Below are positions 48,601 to 61,400 of a stretch of DNA of 64,000 nucleotides, piece by piece. A program made the translations under genes and the position numbers. Numbering within the stretch: the first letter of the stretch is position 1; each line of letters starts with the position of its first letter. Origin of the DNA: Mesodorylaimus sp. YZB2_4 (lineage: Eukaryota > Nematoda > Enoplea > Dorylaimida > Dorylaimidae); contig JASANH010001470.1 in the NCBI GenBank assembly GCA_030248295.1, forward strand, positions 124,001 through 188,000. Reading direction: 5' to 3'. The notes under the pieces were generated by a model that was given only the letters and a program-made list of their open reading frames with translations, had not been told where the DNA came from and ran no database searches.

Positions 48601-48959
48601 AAGTTATGGCAACAGTCATTAAGTTTTTCCCAACATTTTTTCGATGTTAGCAATCATGAATCAATGCAGACACCACAAAAAACCTGGTTGTCCTAAAATT
48701 ACTGCATCAGTCGAATACTGACCCCGGTTGCCTTCGATACCATTCTATCGACTAAGTGGTTTTAAATGAGTTTGGTTTTCATATTTTTGATCATCTATTC
48801 GAGCCCTACAGTATGATGACCCAGAAGCTCAAATTTAGCAGCTAATTCATCTTTTCTGGAATCCTTCTACAGCTGAGTTGCGCGAGTTGTTTTTCACGAG
48901 ACCTGCCTTTGTCAACAAAATCATCATAAGTTTCGTAACAGACAAATTTCTTTCCGCGC

Positions 48960-49450
48960 CTTAGAAACCTCCGAATCAGCAGAATTATCAGCCACAGACT
49001 GACATTCCTGCATTGGGATAGTCCAGGACTTCCTCTTTCTCGTTCCTCTTTAACACTAGTTTATTCACTATGTTGACCTTTGCTGGGTGCCAGAGGTGAC
49101 TGTCAATTCTCCTTTTATTAAACCTTTGCAAGTCAGCTTCTGGTCCAATCACTGAGGCCAAGTACCACAGCTTTGACAAATAGTAGCCACAGATATTCTG
49201 CCTAAATATGAAATTTATGAGGTCGGAATTTTTTCTTAATGTCCACCAATTAAATCTCTGACACAGGCCCAGTTTTCGGCTATTTACGTGCCATCCCTAC
49301 TAATCCGAAATCTCATATATTTTCACTTTATCAACTATAAAATGCTCCTTTCCTAACCTCCGCCTGTGATGATGATCCAAATCAGCAGGAATTTGGTCTT
49401 TGCTCGTTGCAGGGTTTCACCTGACGCTCATTCATTAGTAAGGATAAAAA
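48960..49450 (-). pseudogene. Truncated copy of the Tx1/L1-like LINE ORF2
   Basis: The frame at 48988-49179 reads LSKLWYLASVIGPEADLQRF and HPAKVNIVNKLVLKR. It closely matches the RT-distal part of ORF2 in the LINE at 55.9-59.5 kb (LSKLWYLASVIAPEDDLQRF, HPAKQNVINKLILKR). Further matching DNA extends to about 49450. Frame is lost outside this block. It shows the LINE is a repeated family. Confidence 0.75.
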
Positions 49451-50746
49451 ATTCGTTCTATCGATTTAAAAACATTCAGTCAGCAACTTAATCAGCATCT
49501 GCGTGATTGTTAGAGTACATGTACGGTGTACTAAAGGCGACAAAATCAAGATTTTTCTCAGATCAAGAAAATCGTTTTCTTTCGCGTCCTCAAATGCCCA
49601 TGCCCCTTATACGGCATTTTTGTCCCGCCGTACAAAAATTTTTGTGGGTGTCTCAAGCAGTCATTCATGAGCAGTGTGGATTTTCTTTACTTAATCAGGT
49701 TGTAAAGTATTCAGTGATCCATGATGAGCAGTGGCAAAGCCTTAAGAGGGGCGCTGCTTGTGCCATGGCACCGTGATAATAAATACCGTTGCTTATCATG
49801 GGTGGCTGCCTTTCGAAAATAGTTGGTGCCTTATTCATTGTTCAAAAAATTACAAGTATATCACATGATCCGATCTAAAACTCATCCGATTCGACCAGAT
49901 CGAAAACATCCTAGCCGATCCAAATTTTTCCCATCCCATCCGACAAACCACATCCGATCTGGTTTAAAGCTAAACGAATTCCTAATCGATGAATTGTTTG
50001 AGCACGTTTCAAAAACCTATCGCACCTTATTAGCCAGCATCTTCAAAAATTTAAAAAACTCAATCGTGAAACTTTTGCTCAGCCCTAAATATAACAGAAA
50101 ACTGATTCGTCTGTACATTGTCGAGCCATTATGGCACGCCTCGCGCACTGCGCAGTAGGAGACTGCCAGCCGCGAAACACAAAGTCCAAACACGAAATGA
50201 TTATCATTGCTGAAAAAGGAGTTCTTTTTCTTACAAGTTCTTCCCCAAACTGTGCAGATCGGTAGTGCTGATAATAAAATACAAACAGCACTCGCTGTGC
50301 TGCCGTACGAAAAGGTGGGATGCAAGAATTATGCGTGCATACGGTTGATTGTAAGCAAAGCGGACTCGGGAATGCGTTGAAAGGGCCAGGTGATACTTTT
50401 GCTCGGAATGAAATCAGTTTGGCTGGCGTACAGTTGGATCCAGGGTGGCCGAAATATTGGGCATGTTTCTGAAACAAATCAATCAAGAAATATCTGTTAT
50501 ATATTTTTACAGATGCATTAAAGGAAAGAAAGTCGAGTTACGGCTTCCTTAAAAACCAACAATTTTTAATGAAAATGCGATGGAGCAGGTGGGGTTAATC
50601 CTGCAGCCATTTCTCTCTGCAAATGTGATGTACTGTTTTTTGTACTACAATATACTAATTAAATTTGAAGTATAGAAGCATACACTATATACTGGACACA
50701 GTATTTGACTTCGTAACAGCGGACATTTACTTGGCGGACTAAAAGA
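49451..50746. other. Stretch without recognised gene, one GATC-rich block
   Basis: A GATCCGATCT / CATCCGA-rich block at 49865-49960 resembles the ends of the GATC foldback families. Other open frames are short and carry no domain. Confidence 0.4.
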
Positions 50747-55147: not shown

Positions 55148-55859
55148 AACACTGTAATTGTGAGTTCGTTGCGAAGCCTTAAGCAAAAATCCAACCTGCA
55201 CTACAAGTCAGGTAGTTTTTCGATTGCTGGTCTGACCTAGGCAGCACCACGAGTGCATTATGGCAATAACCTCGGTTTTGTGGCAACACTCAGCGCTGCA
55301 TTGTGGCGGCGTTCCCATGGGTGAGCGGCAGTGTATTAGGGATGACCCAGGTCAATGTGGCTTGAGTGAGCGGCACCATTGGTGAGCGACAACGGCTATA
55401 AGACCAATATACATATTCTGCTTGTAATATCCGTAGTCTTTATCCTCCTGAGCTCATTCAAATTTTGCCATTTTATTTGATCTGGATCTGTCCATATTAC
55501 AATAAAAATTATTTAAAACTTACGAATACGTGCAGGAATCATTGCAAAGATGCATATCTACAAAAGCGCATTGATTCGTGCTGATTGTGGCATACAGTGG
55601 GCTGATGGGCGTAGGTTCGTAGCGATTGGATTAGCTTGGCGGCGACGAAATTCTCTTTGGATTCTCATAATTCGTTGGTGAACGCTTTAACTTTGGTTGA
55701 CGCGTCTCTCTGAGGCAGCATTGTTAGCTGTGGACAGACCTCTTTTGTAGCTTGGGTCTACGATTTTTCTTTTTCCCCGTTTATTTCTTTTTTCGTTCCC
55801 CCCCCTTTTTTTTCTCTCCTTTTCCCCTATTCTCCCTCTAATTTTTTATATATTATATA
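55148..55859. other. Spacer with GTGAGCGGCA-type repeats before the LINE
   Basis: The block 55317-55392 (GGGTGAGCGGCAGTGTATTA, TGACCCAGGTCAATGTGGCT) is found inverted at 61286-61370 on the far side of the LINE. 55740-55850 is very T/C-rich. No gene recognised. Confidence 0.55.
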
Positions 55860-55905
55860 AAAAAAAAAAAAAACTTTTTTTTTTTTTTTATTTTTTATTA
55901 TGTAT

Positions 55906-58900
55906 TTATTTCTTGGCTATTTCTAATAATAAAGAAGACTTTACAAAGATCTCGTTAAAAAGATGCGGTGTCAAGGCATAGCTAGCTCTTTTGAACAAAA
56001 GTCGAAGGCGCTTTAAGAGTGAAACCCAAAGGTCAGTGTCTAAATTCTTTTCCTCATAATCCATTCTAGCAAACCAAATGCATCTCTGCGCTGATTGTAG
56101 AATCAAGTTTACAATCACCTTCAGATGTGAGGATTTTCCGCCAGTCACTCCAAAAATCCTATTCTCATCGTTCAAAATAATAGTCGGGTCAATATCCTGG
56201 ATAAGTACGCTCACCCTGTGCCAAAATACCTGAACTCTGTCACACTCAACAAAGACATGATATACGTCTTCGCATTTGTCCTCGCCAGTCACCTCTGTGC
56301 AGTACTTACAATTTGAGCTAACATCTGTAAACTTGGACACTCTGTTCCTTGCATACAATCCTTTGTACAGAAGGGAGAAATGTATGCTTCGTGTCAGACC
56401 ATCAACGTGCTTTGTTGTATTTAATCTCCAATATGCACCAAAGTCAATCGATTCTTTCTTAAGCTTCTCCCTCCAATATTCCTCCATTGCCCTCGTGGCC
56501 TTACCTACCTTTTTCTCAAGCATGTTTCTATACAAAAGCTTGGTTTTTACATGCTTTATTGGATAAGTCTTCGCGTCAAGACCTACGCTATGGTCACTCA
56601 AAAAACTAAATTTAGCACTCAAAACGGCTTTCCGAATGTCCTTGTATAAACGGGGCGCCCGTATGAAACTAAGCTGCGATAAACTTGCCTTCTCTACTTT
56701 ACCATAGAAGTAATCGAAGAAAGAGTGCCATACAGCCTTCTCCTGAGCCAAATGCCTGCGCACCAACAACATCAAACGAAAAGCGAGCACTTTAAAGCCA
56801 ATGTCAGGGTACCCCAATCCTCCCCGCTCTTTGGTCCTTTTCAATATGAGCTTATTTATCACATTCTGCTTAGCTGGATGCCTAAGATATACATCCATCT
56901 GTGTCTCAACAAACCTTTGCAGATCATCTTCTGGTGCAATTACTGATGCTAAATACCAAAGTTTGGACAAGAAATAAGTACTAGCCACGTATACCCTTCC
57001 GAAATAGGACATGTCATTGTGTGGCGTCTTGTTTCCCAGCGTGCCTACGTGGTTTCGGACACCATCCCAGTTTACAGCTATGACCATACCTTCTCTTTCT
57101 ATTAGAAAACCGTACACTTTAATCTGACTGACAACAAAATCCTGGAAGCTGGCTTCTAAGGAATCCTTCCCCATCTTACCCAGCAACAGGATTCTGGTTT
57201 TAGCATGTTTCAGAGTCGCCCCTGATGCTCGGTTGTACAAATCATAGACTTCAAAGACCCGTTTTACAGATGCTGAATCAGATAGAAGGAAATTTGTGTC
57301 ATCCGCATAGTTGCTCAATTTGAGATATTTCCCAACCAAGTCGATTCCAGTCACAGCCGTGTCCCTCCTTATGCAATTCGTTACCGTTTCAGACACCAGC
57401 ACTTAGAGCAGTGCAGACAGGGGGCAACCCTGCCTAATGCCCCTGCTAGGTTTGAAAGGTGCTGATACATAACCATTTACCTGAACTGATGAAGTTACTA
57501 AACCAGTTTTATAGATAAGGCGAACCCACTGCTTGAACAAAGGACCCAATCCAAAAAAATCCAAAACGCGGAACATATATTCCCATTCGATTATGTCAAA
57601 GGCTGACATGTGGTCAACTGACAAAATTAAGGCGTCCATTTCCTTCTCGTTTATATATTCAACTGCGTTGTAGAGCGTTATTACACCATCCCGGATGTCC
57701 CTTCCTGGCACAGAGCAGGTTTGGTCAGGATGTACAAGTTTGCCCAGCACTTTTCTGAGTCTCATCACTAAAATTTTTGCTAATATTTTGTAATCCACGT
57801 TTAGCATGGTAAGCGGCCTCCAGTTGGACCTTAGCTTTTTATCGCCTTCTCCTTTAAACAGCTGCGAAATGATCCCGAAGTAAGAGCTCGAGGGCAGCTT
57901 TCCTAGCCTAAAAGAGCATGCGTAGATCCGACACAGCACAGCACTCAGCTCTGAGAGGAACATGACATAGAACTCAATCGGCAGCCCATCGCTGCCTGGT
58001 GTCTTCTTTCTTTGAAAGGATCCTATTGCTCGTTTTATCTCCTCTTGAGTTACTTCCTCCCCCAGCATCGCCCTATCTACATCATCTGCCTTGCCATGCG
58101 GTTCTTGGGCCAGAAAAACATTAGCTGCATCAGTTTCACTTCCTCCTACGCTTGTAAACAAGCACTCATACTGTCTTCGTATCTCGCCTATCACATCCAG
58201 CTGATCTGAGTGCGTGATCCCATTCTCATCGGTAATCGCATATACAGTTCTCTGCTCCGCTGAGTTCTTTTGCATCATCTTAGCAGTCACCAGTGTGAAC
58301 TGGTCAGTTGCCATGTCTCTGAAATGTGTTTTTCCCAATCTTTTCCTTATTTCCTCACGGTCAAACGTTCTTAGGCGCTCACGGATATCTGTAAACTCTG
58401 TTTTCAGTAGGTCACTGGCAGGATGCACTGACAACCACTTTTTACACTTTTGCAACTCTTTTTCCAGGTCAAACCGCTTTTTCCTATTCTCCTTATCAAC
58501 ATATTTTTTGTGTGCTTTACACAAAAAGGCGACCTCCCCCTTGAAGTCCTCCCACAAGGACAGCACCTCTTTGTCATGTGCTGATGTCAAATCGCCCTGC
58601 AATATTCGCAGTTTGTCCTTTATCTGCTCTTGCAGTAGCTCGTCTCTTTGCAGCAAATCAAAATCTAGCTTCCAGTATGAAGGACCTCTCCGCAGCTCTG
58701 CAAACGCAAAATTGAAAGTTACCTCAAAGATTTTATGGTCGGACAATACGGTGTCAACAAAATTAAAGCTTACATACGAGTCAACTATATTCTGCGTACT
58801 ATAAATCCTGTCAAGCCTTCCCTGGGTCTTGGTGCTATGCGCAAGATGCGTAAAAAGTTTGCTACTAGGATTGTGATATCGAAAGATATCATGAAGCTTG

Positions 58901-59517
58901 AATTTCGAGGAAAACTTTCGAAATTCCTTTAATCCAGCTTCCGTATAGAACGTGATTTCACTCCTATCAAGCTCCTTCGACTCTACAAAATTGAAATCTC
59001 CTATACAGACAGCCGCATCGTGATACCTGAATCTTTGTAAGGCCTTTTCTAGCAAAGATTCGAAAAAAGATTTTCTCGGAGATTCCTGAGTTGGAGCATA
59101 CACACCGCACAAAAGGAATATCCAATTCTCATACTTGGCAGTCAGAAATAAGGCACGCCCCTCAATACTAGTCAATCGATTGATATCCGAAAATAATGAC
59201 CCATGACTTATGAGCAAACATACTCCAGCACTAAACTCGTCAGAAAAAGAATGAAAAATTTTGAATTTTGCAACGAAGACATTATCAAAATATGCAGATT
59301 CCCTCTTATTTCTGAAATGCGTTTCCTGAATGCAGACAACTGAATATGAATTTAAAAAATTAAAAAAGGATAAGGTCTTGATTTGTTTATCTCTCAATCC
59401 TGCCGCATTCAAAGTTGCGAAAGACACTCTATTATTCCCTATTTCACAAAAAAGATAAATAAAAAGGAAGAGAAAAACAAAGGGCCAAAGCGAAGCTTGG
59501 TGCCAAACAGAGATCAA
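55906..59517 (-). pseudogene. LINE ORF2: APE endonuclease + reverse transcriptase, one stop
   Basis: Read on the minus strand the frame covers 1203 codons, interrupted only by TAA at 57405-57403. The apurinic-type endonuclease has its key motifs: LNAAGLRD, QETHF, GVYAPT, IGDFNFV and LSDHKIFEV. The RT has LTMLNVDYKIL, QTCSVPGRDI, LSVDHMSAFD, GIRQGCPLSALL and YADDTNF, so the catalytic Asp residues are kept. The C-terminal part has a CKYC...HVFVEC zinc-like motif typical of L1/Tx1-type ORF2. The stop sits just after RQGCPLSALL, so RT would be truncated before YADD. No ATG opens the frame; the earliest codons overlap the ORF1 stop, suggesting reinitiation or frameshifting if translated. The single defect suggests a young copy. 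Confidence 0.9.
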
Positions 59518-60956
59518 CAGTTGGACGCAAAGTCCTTGCTCACCTTACGCCGACTCTGGTGCTGATCGTCCATGCTCAATTCGCTGCTTGTGCTGTGCGG
59601 CCTTTTGCCTCGTTCGTCCGGTTGGTTCTGATTTTGCTGTGAATCCTTGATCTCCGCTGCGTATTCCAAAGATGCCATCATTTTATCCCGTAAGTTAGTG
59701 AGAAGTTTACCAAACTCGTTCGCACCTTTCCACATCGTTGGATCGTTGATATTAGGATCGTCGCATTGCAAACCGACTCCCCATCGGATGTCATTCGGGT
59801 TGCCCTCGACCAAAACCATTGGCGCGGTTCCAAACAAATACTTTCGCAGGTTAGGATTCTGCTCGTACTTTTTCTCATTACCAATCAGTAGCTTCTTTTT
59901 AGCGAAATCCATCCAATCTCCGAGTTTTTCTTGATCCCATTCAACTCCCTCGCCGAGTTTCTTTGCGTCAGCTGCTGTTTTAGCTCTCATGATCTTTTTT
60001 TCCGCTGCTTTATCGCCATCAGCAAACGCTTTTTCTTTGAACAGGAAATGTTCAGTGGATGAGTATTCTTTTCCATCGATCTTTATCGTGCATGCGTAGT
60101 GATTCGATAACGGGCTGTCCTTCGAAAAGAAAGGCAATACCCGCTGCTTCGAAGACACTGATGGCCTTCGAATCATTGGCTGTTCGCCAGTTAACGTGAT
60201 CAAGGGCGGAAAATCGCTTTCATTTGCTGATGCCACGATGTTCGTTGTAGTCGACAATGTTGCTTTCTGGAGAAATCCGCCACCACGTGATCCACTTGCC
60301 ATTGCTGCATATGACCCAGGATTTGGAGCCGACAGGTAACAATCTTTCGCCACGTGTCCCTTGTTCTTACACTTGAAACACCAGGTTGCCATGCCATAAT
60401 ACCATATTTGAATTGGAAATAACCTTTTCTGTCTCGCTGTTTTGAAAACGAGAAAACCAGGAATTTCTTTGTTTTCATCCACTGTGACCACAACTGATCT
60501 CCCACCGTTTCTTATTTCGGTTTCCTTCCAGCATAGCCATCGAAAATCAGAGGAAACAGTCATCCCATTTTCTTTCAGCCATTTTGTCACTTCATGCTGA
60601 TCGATTTCGTATGGGATTCCAAACAGATGGATCGTTCTCTTGATCTTTGGTACGTACGCTCTTGGTATTTCCAGATCCACTCGCAAGTTAAAAATCGATA
60701 GCTTTTCCCTGACCACAAAATCACGTGCTTCTTTCGAGACGAATTTCAACTCAATTGAGTTCCGCAGTCGATTCCCAAAGAGCGGCTGCTTCTCTTTCGT
60801 ATTTTCCTTCCAAATTGCTGCCATAATTTCGTTTTCGGGTTTGTCCAACAGATGGTTCGACTCCAATGAAATATATGCATACAAGTTATCTTCACCAAAT
60901 TTCCTTGTTATGCTTCCTTGTACGTCACCAGTATCCATTGCTGCGCTCGTTTCCAT
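59514..60956 (-). CDS. LINE ORF1: RRM-like, CCHC zinc knuckle and NADAR domain
   Basis: An intact 480-aa frame. Residues about 65-185 have an RRM-like pattern (TIHLFGIPYEIDQHEVTKWL) seen in ORF1 of Tx1/L1-type elements. A CCHC knuckle follows at 193-206 (CFKCKNKGHVAKDC). Residues about 274-428 match the NADAR (YbiA/DUF1768) fold: FFSKDSPLSNHY, YSSTEHFLFKEKAF, AKKLGEGVEW, EQNPNLRKYLFGTAP, NDIRWGVGL and MWKGANEFGKLL. The conserved SxEH Glu/His and the D-x-x-WG motif are present. Characterised NADAR proteins act on ADP-ribose-type compounds or cleave N-glycosidic bonds, for example in riboflavin intermediates. What the domain does for a retrotransposon is unknown. The frame is free of stops over the whole domain, which argues for selection or recent activity. 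Confidence 0.85.
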   Translation of the reverse strand: METSAAMDTGDVQGSITRKFGEDNLYAYISLESNHLLDKPENEIMAAIWKENTKEKQPLFGNRLRNSIELKFVSKEARDFVVREKLSIFNLRVDLEIPRAYVPKIKRTIHLFGIPYEIDQHEVTKWLKENGMTVSSDFRWLCWKETEIRNGGRSVVVTVDENKEIPGFLVFKTARQKRLFPIQIWYYGMATWCFKCKNKGHVAKDCYLSAPNPGSYAAMASGSRGGGFLQKATLSTTTNIVASANESDFPPLITLTGEQPMIRRPSVSSKQRVLPFFSKDSPLSNHYACTIKIDGKEYSSTEHFLFKEKAFADGDKAAEKKIMRAKTAADAKKLGEGVEWDQEKLGDWMDFAKKKLLIGNEKKYEQNPNLRKYLFGTAPMVLVEGNPNDIRWGVGLQCDDPNINDPTMWKGANEFGKLLTNLRDKMMASLEYAAEIKDSQQNQNQPDERGKRPHSTSSELSMDDQHQSRRKVSKDFASNC

Positions 60957-61285: not shown

Positions 61286-61400
61286 ATTGCCGCTCACCAA
61301 TGGTGTCGCTCATTTAAGCCACATTGACCTGGGTCATCTCTTACACACTGTCGCTCGCCAATGTTGTCGCTCGCCCATGGTGTCGCTCACCCATGGTTGA
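61286..61400. repeat. Inverted partner of the 55.3-kb repeat, with GTCGCTC units
   Basis: GCCGCTCACCAATGGTG, AAGCCACATTGACCTGGGTC and TACACACTG are the inverse of 55317-55392. Here the GTCGCTC(A/G)CCCATGG unit is additionally repeated (61350-61395). The two copies flank the LINE at a distance of about 6 kb. Confidence 0.7.

What the first reader, a model, noticed from the sequence alone, without database searches (positions are those of the whole stretch)
59514..60956. Retrotransposon ORF1 carrying a NADAR (YbiA-like) domain
The intact ORF1 of a two-ORF LINE combines an RRM-like region, a CCHC knuckle and a C-terminal stretch with ordered NADAR motifs (SPLSNHY, YSSTEHFLF, NPNLRKYLF, NDIRWGVGL, MWKGANEF). 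NADAR proteins process ADP-ribose- or nucleotide-derived glycosidic compounds. A retroelement that encodes one might modify host NAD/ADP-ribose signalling, counter a base-modifying defence, or act on its RNA/DNA template. I do not know whether this fusion has been described.
Basis: partly seen in the sequence, partly recalled or inferred. Interest (0 to 1): 0.88.

Follow-up and report, generated by a model that had tools for sequence, protein, structure and literature searches.

The report
Nematode jumping gene with NADAR enzyme
A family of LINE jumping genes in a nematode carries, in its RNA-binding protein, a well-preserved enzyme domain of a kind that elsewhere strips ADP-ribose from guanine, and its two genes may be joined by splicing; related fusions were reported in oyster and brown-alga elements in 2025, so this is a new, testable variant.

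The parts
59514..60956 (-). ORF1, 480 aa, intact
   Evidence: same place as G000:C154:183517-184956
60384..60893 (-). RRM-like region, residues 22-191 (first RRM well supported, second weakly)
   Evidence: AlphaFold2 model, Foldseek and VIA-align matches to RRMs; no Pfam match
60339..60380 (-). CCHC zinc knuckle, residues 193-206
   Evidence: PF00098 19.3 bits, cut-off 20.8; 6 of 7 family members
59679..60131 (-). NADAR domain, residues 276-426
59781..60053 (-). Conserved NADAR positions E302, K309, W348, E384, D389, W392
   Evidence: mapped by me through the alignment to P. nicotianae E43, K50, W89, E125, D130, W133 (PMC11543638); kept in 19 of 27 LINE loci
59439..59548 (-). Putative 110-nt intron: C|GTAAGG donor inside the ORF1 tail, GAAATAG|GG acceptor at the endonuclease start; removal fuses ORF1 to ORF2 in frame
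   Evidence: sequence; codon constraint; no RNA evidence
57403..59517 (-). ORF2 first part (endonuclease, first part of RT); first ATG at residue 402 of the open frame; ends in an in-frame TAA at 57403-57405
58735..59418 (-). Endonuclease domain of ORF2
   Evidence: PF03372 22.4 bits, under the cut-off of 24.5, 30.1 in another copy; human L1 EN 1vyb 4.7e-11
55906..57402 (-). ORF2 remainder in the same frame after the stop (end of RT and C-terminal part)
   Evidence: gapless against another copy's ORF2, 79.5% over 1187 aa
60957..61156 (-). 5' UTR; homology to the nearest copy (C90) begins at about 61156
   Evidence: alignment start; 5' sequences
55871..55905 (-). Start of A-rich 3' region; true 3' end not determined

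Best explanation
This is one copy of a recently active, L1-type LINE family of a nematode whose ORF1 protein is an RRM and CCHC nucleic-acid-binding protein with a C-terminal YbiA-type NADAR domain kept by purifying selection. Most likely the NADAR is an active N-glycosyl hydrolase that removes ADP-ribose from guanine in the nucleic acid that ORF1p coats (element RNA, or single-stranded cDNA and target DNA at the insertion site), protecting it against host or toxin ADP-ribosyltransferases. Part of the protein may be delivered as an ORF1-ORF2 fusion from a spliced RNA, which would place the NADAR directly before the endonuclease; unspliced RNA would give free ORF1p and be the form copied into DNA. 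Shown at sequence level: domain identity, predicted fold, conserved positions, selection, many young copies, missing ORF2 start codon, donor codon constraint. Inferred: catalysis, substrate, counter-defence purpose, actual splicing.
For: Profile and fold matches. Six positions mapped to the ADP-ribose-bound P. nicotianae enzyme (which hydrolyses guanine-ADPr, PMC11543638 passages) kept in 19 of 27 LINE loci, K or R counted alike, and in three same-architecture proteins from other samples (P0001, P0002, P0066). NADAR dN 0.25-0.35 between five subfamilies against 0.43-0.65 for residues 1-275, dS mostly saturated; within-subfamily dN/dS 0.15, 0.10, 0.19, 0.18 in four pairs, 0.49 in a fifth whose partner has four stops. 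Copies 99.1-99.7% alike, those checked with different 5' flanks; 9 of 41 listed ORF2 matches are full length without stops (39 of 1277 candidates scored). All NADARs tested on RNA in PMC11833690 reversed guanosine ADP-ribosylation (passages). The host has PARP-domain matches (10 stretches). Splicing: no ATG upstream of the endonuclease in 24 of 26 copies; CGT-AAG codes the tail Arg-Lys at 3 of 4 tail sites (the fourth, C37, has CGC-AAG) and 0 of 29 other Arg-Lys pairs in seven ORFs, while only 3 of 54 invariant non-Met/Trp columns keep one codon across five subfamilies; in-frame open GT-AG fusion in 9 of 26 copies, from four subfamilies, introns 65, 110, 113, 116 nt.
Against: No biochemistry, no RNA data. 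R79 and R93, phosphate-contacting in the P. nicotianae enzyme, are not kept (E336, A352 by my reading). The YbiA clade also acts on riboflavin intermediates, so sequence does not fix the substrate. Splicing: the C37 subfamily, among the youngest, offers only a GC donor for an in-frame fusion, and a strong GT donor after the ORF1 stop that gives no ATG for ORF2; C267, C627 and C132 lack the acceptor; C509 and C1066 do not fuse in frame; C49 has an ATG instead. The four supporting subfamilies share the site phases by descent, and their intron lengths are all equal modulo 3, so frame agreement is not independent evidence. None of 62 ORF2 relatives carries PF08719 in its precomputed domains. No intronless copy among 87 matches. 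ORF2 could start at a non-AUG codon.
Confidence: 0.45

Rival explanations
1. The NADAR is catalytically idle or weak and serves as an RNA- or partner-binding module, for example docking element RNA on splicing or cap-binding factors as nematode SNA-3 (three NADARs) is thought to do in trans-splicing.
For: SNA-3 links the SL1 snRNP to CBC-ARS2 and is nematode-specific (PMC9303266 passages); the host has a gene of that architecture (L041, judged by eye).
Against: The six positions are kept in 19 of 27 LINE loci, whereas two of the three host NADAR loci tabled (L033, L036) have lost three of them. The same paper found that mutating such residues impairs SNA-3, so conservation alone does not separate the two readings fully.
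Confidence: 0.2
2. The NADAR hydrolyses small molecules (riboflavin intermediates, cyclic or free ADP-ribose, NAD-derived signals) and changes host signalling rather than acting on nucleic acid.
For: E. coli YbiA activity; proposals for phage NADARs (PMC9503650 passages).
Against: It is fused to an RRM and CCHC protein rather than free-standing; for RNA viruses of animals the same authors favour macromolecular ADP-ribose.
Confidence: 0.15
3. ORF2 is translated from the unspliced bicistronic RNA by reinitiation at a non-AUG codon; the GT-AG signals are coincidental.
For: AUG-independent ORF2 translation is known for mammalian L1 (recalled, no call). A GGCACCAAG-like motif recurs in the inter-ORF stretch of several subfamilies and could be a translation signal. 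The youngest groups do not all offer a GT-AG fusion.
Against: CGT-AAG constraint at the tail; acceptor ATAG|G kept in 22 of 26 copies; six of the seven ORF2 relatives shown start with Met just before the same endonuclease motif (P0006 within it), starts as predicted by the database.
Confidence: 0.45
4. The NADAR is a neutral passenger.
For: Many copies are broken.
Against: NADAR dN/dS 0.10-0.19 in four of five pairs and lower dN than the rest of ORF1.
Confidence: 0.02

Closest known systems
NADAR-bearing ORF1 of Tx1 LINEs of Crassostrea gigas (PMC12477816, passages)
   Same: LINE ORF1 with a YbiA-family NADAR domain
   Different: Oyster sequences not in hand. Two presumed relatives (P0003, P0067; coiled-coil ORF1s, the Tx1 label is mine) lie apart from this family in the NADAR tree, show no CCHC in Pfam and carry R and F at the W348 and W392 positions.
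NADAR-bearing Gypsy elements of Ectocarpus (PMC12477816)
   Same: Retroelement with NADAR
   Different: [quoted passage not shown] here a non-LTR ORF1.
P. nicotianae NADAR (PDB 8bau) and E. coli YbiA (2b3w)
   Different: Stand-alone enzymes; 26% identity; R79 and R93 of 8bau not kept.
Human L1 ORF2p
   Same: Endonuclease plus RT; window ORF2 matches 8sxt at 9e-58
   Different: ORF2 here has no own ATG before the endonuclease in 24 of 26 copies.
SNA-3 of nematodes (PMC9303266, passages)
   Same: Nematode protein with NADAR domains in an RNA context
   Different: Host gene with three NADARs; no LINE context.

Membership tests
NADAR superfamily (PF08719), YbiA clade | Profile match above the curated cut-off | tested here: met
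   97.8 against 35.1 bits; TIGR02464 102.3 against 73.7
NADAR superfamily (PF08719), YbiA clade | NADAR/YbiA fold | tested here: met
   [not shown]
NADAR superfamily (PF08719), YbiA clade | Glutamate at the last-strand catalytic position (Asp in BC4488, His in phage) | tested here: met
   E384, invariant in the seven-protein alignment; criterion from PMC11125620
NADAR superfamily (PF08719), YbiA clade | Hydrolysis of guanosine-ADPr or of riboflavin intermediates | not testable with these tools
   needs purified protein
L1-type LINE | ORF2 with endonuclease and RT of L1 type | tested here: met
   8sxt 9e-58 against R2 8.5e-6; RVT_1 8.2e-28 in an uninterrupted copy
L1-type LINE | Target-primed insertion: A-rich 3' end, target-site duplication | tested here: inconclusive
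   A-rich 3' region in the four copies shown; one 8-nt duplication seen by eye at C37; the scripted search returned none because its anchor was cut off
Tx1 LINEs with NADAR (oyster) | Membership in the Tx1 clade by RT phylogeny | not tested
   no Tx1 reference sequences in hand
SNA-3 | Three NADAR domains in a nematode trans-splicing protein | tested here: not met
   one NADAR, LINE context

The most novel reading that the evidence does not exclude
A LINE that regulates its two proteins somewhat as a retrovirus does: an intron retained in the genomic RNA is spliced out of a subset to fuse ORF1, with its NADAR de-ADP-ribosylase, directly onto the endonuclease-reverse transcriptase, so that an ADP-ribose eraser travels with the reverse transcriptase to the target site; in the same nematode genome an unrelated Helitron family has also taken up a NADAR, pointing to ADP-ribosylation as a common pressure on transposons.
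Probability: 0.3. Interest if true: 0.85.

Novelty: new variant of a known kind. Interest (0 to 1): 0.62.

Why it matters
NADARs are erasers of guanine ADP-ribosylation whose roles outside bacterial toxin systems remain unclear (PMC11125620 passages). A selected, active-site-bearing NADAR tied to a transposon's own RNA-binding protein in an animal gives a natural system in which to ask whether animals ADP-ribosylate transposon nucleic acids as defence. If the intron is real, it would be a splicing-based way for a LINE to express its reverse transcriptase; I saw no such report in the listings of searches (25 of 76 papers listed; 10 of 9,634; 1 of 1, checked), which is thin cover.

Tried and rejected
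Rejected: chance motif match (profile and fold calls); neutral passenger. Frameshifting as a common route to ORF2: in C110, C51 and C37 the ORF2 frame opens only after the ORF1 stop (19, 22 and 14 open codons upstream of the endonuclease anchor, ORF1 stops 68, 107 and 159 nt upstream; my arithmetic); in the window copy the frames overlap by about 28 nt, so it is not excluded there. Stop readthrough fits only C267 and C627, whose ORFs share one frame with a single TAG. On checking I found that the intron lengths of the four supporting subfamilies are all equal modulo 3, so I dropped an argument from varying length and lowered the novel case from 0.35 to 0.3. An intronless copy was sought with a junction peptide and not found (87 matches). 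The SL1 RNA search found nothing, and its controls were empty too, so it says nothing. The 18S rRNA search failed twice. Bacterial relatives of the NADAR: none with the single-protein query. NADAR origin: the tree puts the nine LINE NADARs in one clade (100/99) but does not place it next to host or phage NADARs. No RRM by Pfam up to E=5 in seven members. RT-clade assignment beyond L1-type was not attempted. Whether relatives without NADAR exist in this genome was not settled: loci were picked by ORF1 or NADAR, and one search scored 39 of 1277 ORF2 candidates.

Full report

Host and copies. The window lies in a 145-Mb genome of 1067 contigs. It is a nematode: 133 matches of the nematode cuticle-collagen N domain (nematode-specificity of that domain is recalled) and a gene with three NADAR domains resembling SNA-3 (L041; judged by architecture). 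The ORF1 search gave 85 matching stretches, which is not a count of elements (89 of 95 candidates scored). The copies examined fall into at least seven groups by DNA identity, their ORF1s about 44-53% identical to the window's apart from C90. They were found through ORF1 or NADAR, so NADAR presence in each group is partly a matter of selection. Groups include pairs 99.1-99.7% alike; for C37, C352, C118 and C72, and for C110 and C171, the 5' flanks differ. Of 41 listed ORF2 matches 9 are full length without stops (39 of 1277 candidates scored). Copies with both frames open exist. The family is thus young and autonomous in appearance.

Selection and active site. One search aligns the domain to 8bau, whose ligand contacts are given in PMC11543638 (passages): E43, K50, W89, E125, D130 and W133 correspond, by my count with an offset of two, to E302, K309, W348, E384, D389 and W392. 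In 27 LINE loci (30 tabled, 3 host genes set aside) 19 keep all six, counting K or R alike at 309; one truncated locus keeps the four it covers; seven depart at one position. E384 puts the domain in the YbiA clade by the criterion in PMC11125620. R79 and R93 of 8bau are not kept. Between five subfamilies NADAR dN is 0.25-0.35 against 0.43-0.65 for residues 1-275, with dS mostly saturated. In unsaturated pairs NADAR dN/dS is 0.15 (window-C90), 0.10, 0.19, 0.18, and 0.49 in one pair whose partner has four stops.

How ORF2 may be expressed. In 26 copies with both ends, the ORF2 frame upstream of the endonuclease has an ATG in two (C49, at the expected place, and C173, 92 codons up in a broken copy). 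The first ATG downstream lies 35-374 codons in, except at 4 or 32 codons in the damaged copies C257, C173 and C132, and was not met before the next stop or the end of the stretch in five. Six of the seven ORF2 relatives shown start with Met just before the same motif and the seventh within it (starts as predicted by the database). At that place this family has ATAG|G (22 of 26 copies), and the ORF1 tail has CGTAAG or CGTGAG (17 of 26, in C509 at another place). Cutting at C|GTRAG and ATAG|G joins ORF1 to ORF2 in frame and open in 9 of 26 copies, from four subfamilies (window, C110, C51, C681), with introns of 65, 110, 113 and 116 nt; C90 (102 nt) also joins but has a stop soon after. Damaged copies of the same groups keep the sites but have lost the frame. 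C56 shows both sites and joins in frame by my reading. The donor is constrained at the nucleotide level: in five subfamily representatives 3 of 54 invariant non-Met/Trp columns keep a single codon, 0 of 3 Arg and 0 of 5 Lys columns, whereas the tail Arg-Lys is CGT-AAG in all five. In seven ORFs CGT-AAG codes 3 of 4 tail Arg-Lys pairs (C37 has CGC-AAG) and 0 of 29 others; CGT is 24 of 279 Arg codons. A six-of-six chance of 4e-9 was computed there for the five plus C56, but it assumes independence, which shared ancestry weakens. Host genes use GTAAG donors and at least one TAG acceptor (L040, read by eye).

Against splicing: the C37 group, among the youngest, has GCAAG at this place and a strong GTGAGC after the ORF1 stop, which gives no ATG for ORF2. 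C267, C627 and C132 lack the acceptor, and in C267 and C627 ORF1 and ORF2 share one frame broken by a TAG. C509 and C1066 do not join. The frame agreement of the four supporting groups is one shared state, since site phases are homologous and intron lengths are equal modulo 3. None of 62 ORF2 relatives is annotated with NADAR, so no ready fusion protein is in that database. No intronless copy was seen, which fits use of unspliced RNA as template but is also what no splicing predicts. No RNA was available. I put functional splicing at roughly 0.45-0.5.

Mechanism. NADARs hydrolyse guanine-linked ADP-ribose in DNA (PMC11543638; PMC11125620) and RNA (PMC11833690), all from passages read. The domain here is tied to a nucleic-acid-binding protein, so the likeliest substrate is ADP-ribosylated guanine on element RNA or on single-stranded DNA at the insertion site. 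The host has PARP-domain matches (10 stretches), but whether it or any toxin modifies nucleic acids is unknown. The purpose, counter-defence or repair, is inference. PMC9503650 (passages) argues in this direction for NADARs of animal RNA viruses, though mainly for macromolecules in general.

Relation to what is known. PMC12477816 (passages) described NADAR in Gypsy elements of Ectocarpus and noted divergent NADAR ORF1s in oyster Tx1 LINEs, so the fusion kind is known. The listings of my other searches (20 of 104 papers listed; 14, none; 15, all 6; 91, all 9; 135, all 8) showed no other report of a LINE with NADAR; the library lacks most subscription papers and preprints. In a 21-row tree the nine NADARs of this architecture are one clade (100/99), apart from two coiled-coil ORF1 NADARs (P0003, P0067) that I presume Tx1-like; sampling is thin and long branches are present, so separate capture is suggested, not shown.

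A second transposon. A Helitron (Helitron_like_N 3.4e-25, PIF1 7.9e-28; UCH 1.1e-9) at C289 is followed about 1.5 kb downstream by a NADAR ORF (9.3e-12). Of 13 contigs with a UCH match at 70% identity or more over 70 or more residues, five (C289, C929, C936, C765, C444) have a NADAR match 1.5-1.9 kb downstream on the same strand; C289 and C929 are identical over the UCH query, C444 also has a reverse NADAR piece in between, and on C280 and C507 the contig ends too soon to tell. Helitrons are known to pick up host sequences (recalled), so this may be a capture rather than a working part.

Noticed in passing
L067:3-5219 and L065:2-3742 (G000:C289:300-9240): A Helitron (Rep-helicase plus ubiquitin-hydrolase domain) followed by a NADAR ORF and an ORF with SGNH-like motifs (the last is my reading, no Pfam match); UCH then NADAR on 5 of 13 contigs with a close UCH match.
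   Followed up: partly
L066:2558-3419 (G000:C174), also C621, C930, C250, C110:8777: Another multi-copy NADAR set, at C174 followed by an SGNH-like ORF; nature of the element unknown.
   Followed up: partly
L040 (G000:C18), L036 (C22), L033 (C38), L041 (C230): Host NADAR genes: an intron-containing tandem pair at C18 (its tabled copy keeps the active-site residues it covers), two with degenerate residues, and a three-NADAR SNA-3-like gene.
   Followed up: partly
inter-ORF stretch, window about 59480-59500 and other copies: A GGCACCAAG-like motif recurs between the ORFs in several subfamilies; role unknown.
   Followed up: no
window 48726-49523 (-): Diverged remnant of a related ORF2 (35-46% identity).
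   Followed up: no
window 55316-55392 and 61287-61363: 77-bp inverted pair, 87% identical, on the two sides of the LINE; may be two pieces of a dispersed repeat.
   Followed up: no
G000:C49:229918 (L032), C47 (L061): A diverged subfamily with an ATG at the ORF2 start in C49 and a GT-AG pair wholly between the ORFs; possible ancestral or alternative expression mode.
   Followed up: partly
PMC7853720 (one passage): A Medea-type selfish element of Caenorhabditis tropicalis includes duplicated genes homologous to NADAR-domain genes, so NADARs recur in nematode selfish contexts.
   Followed up: no
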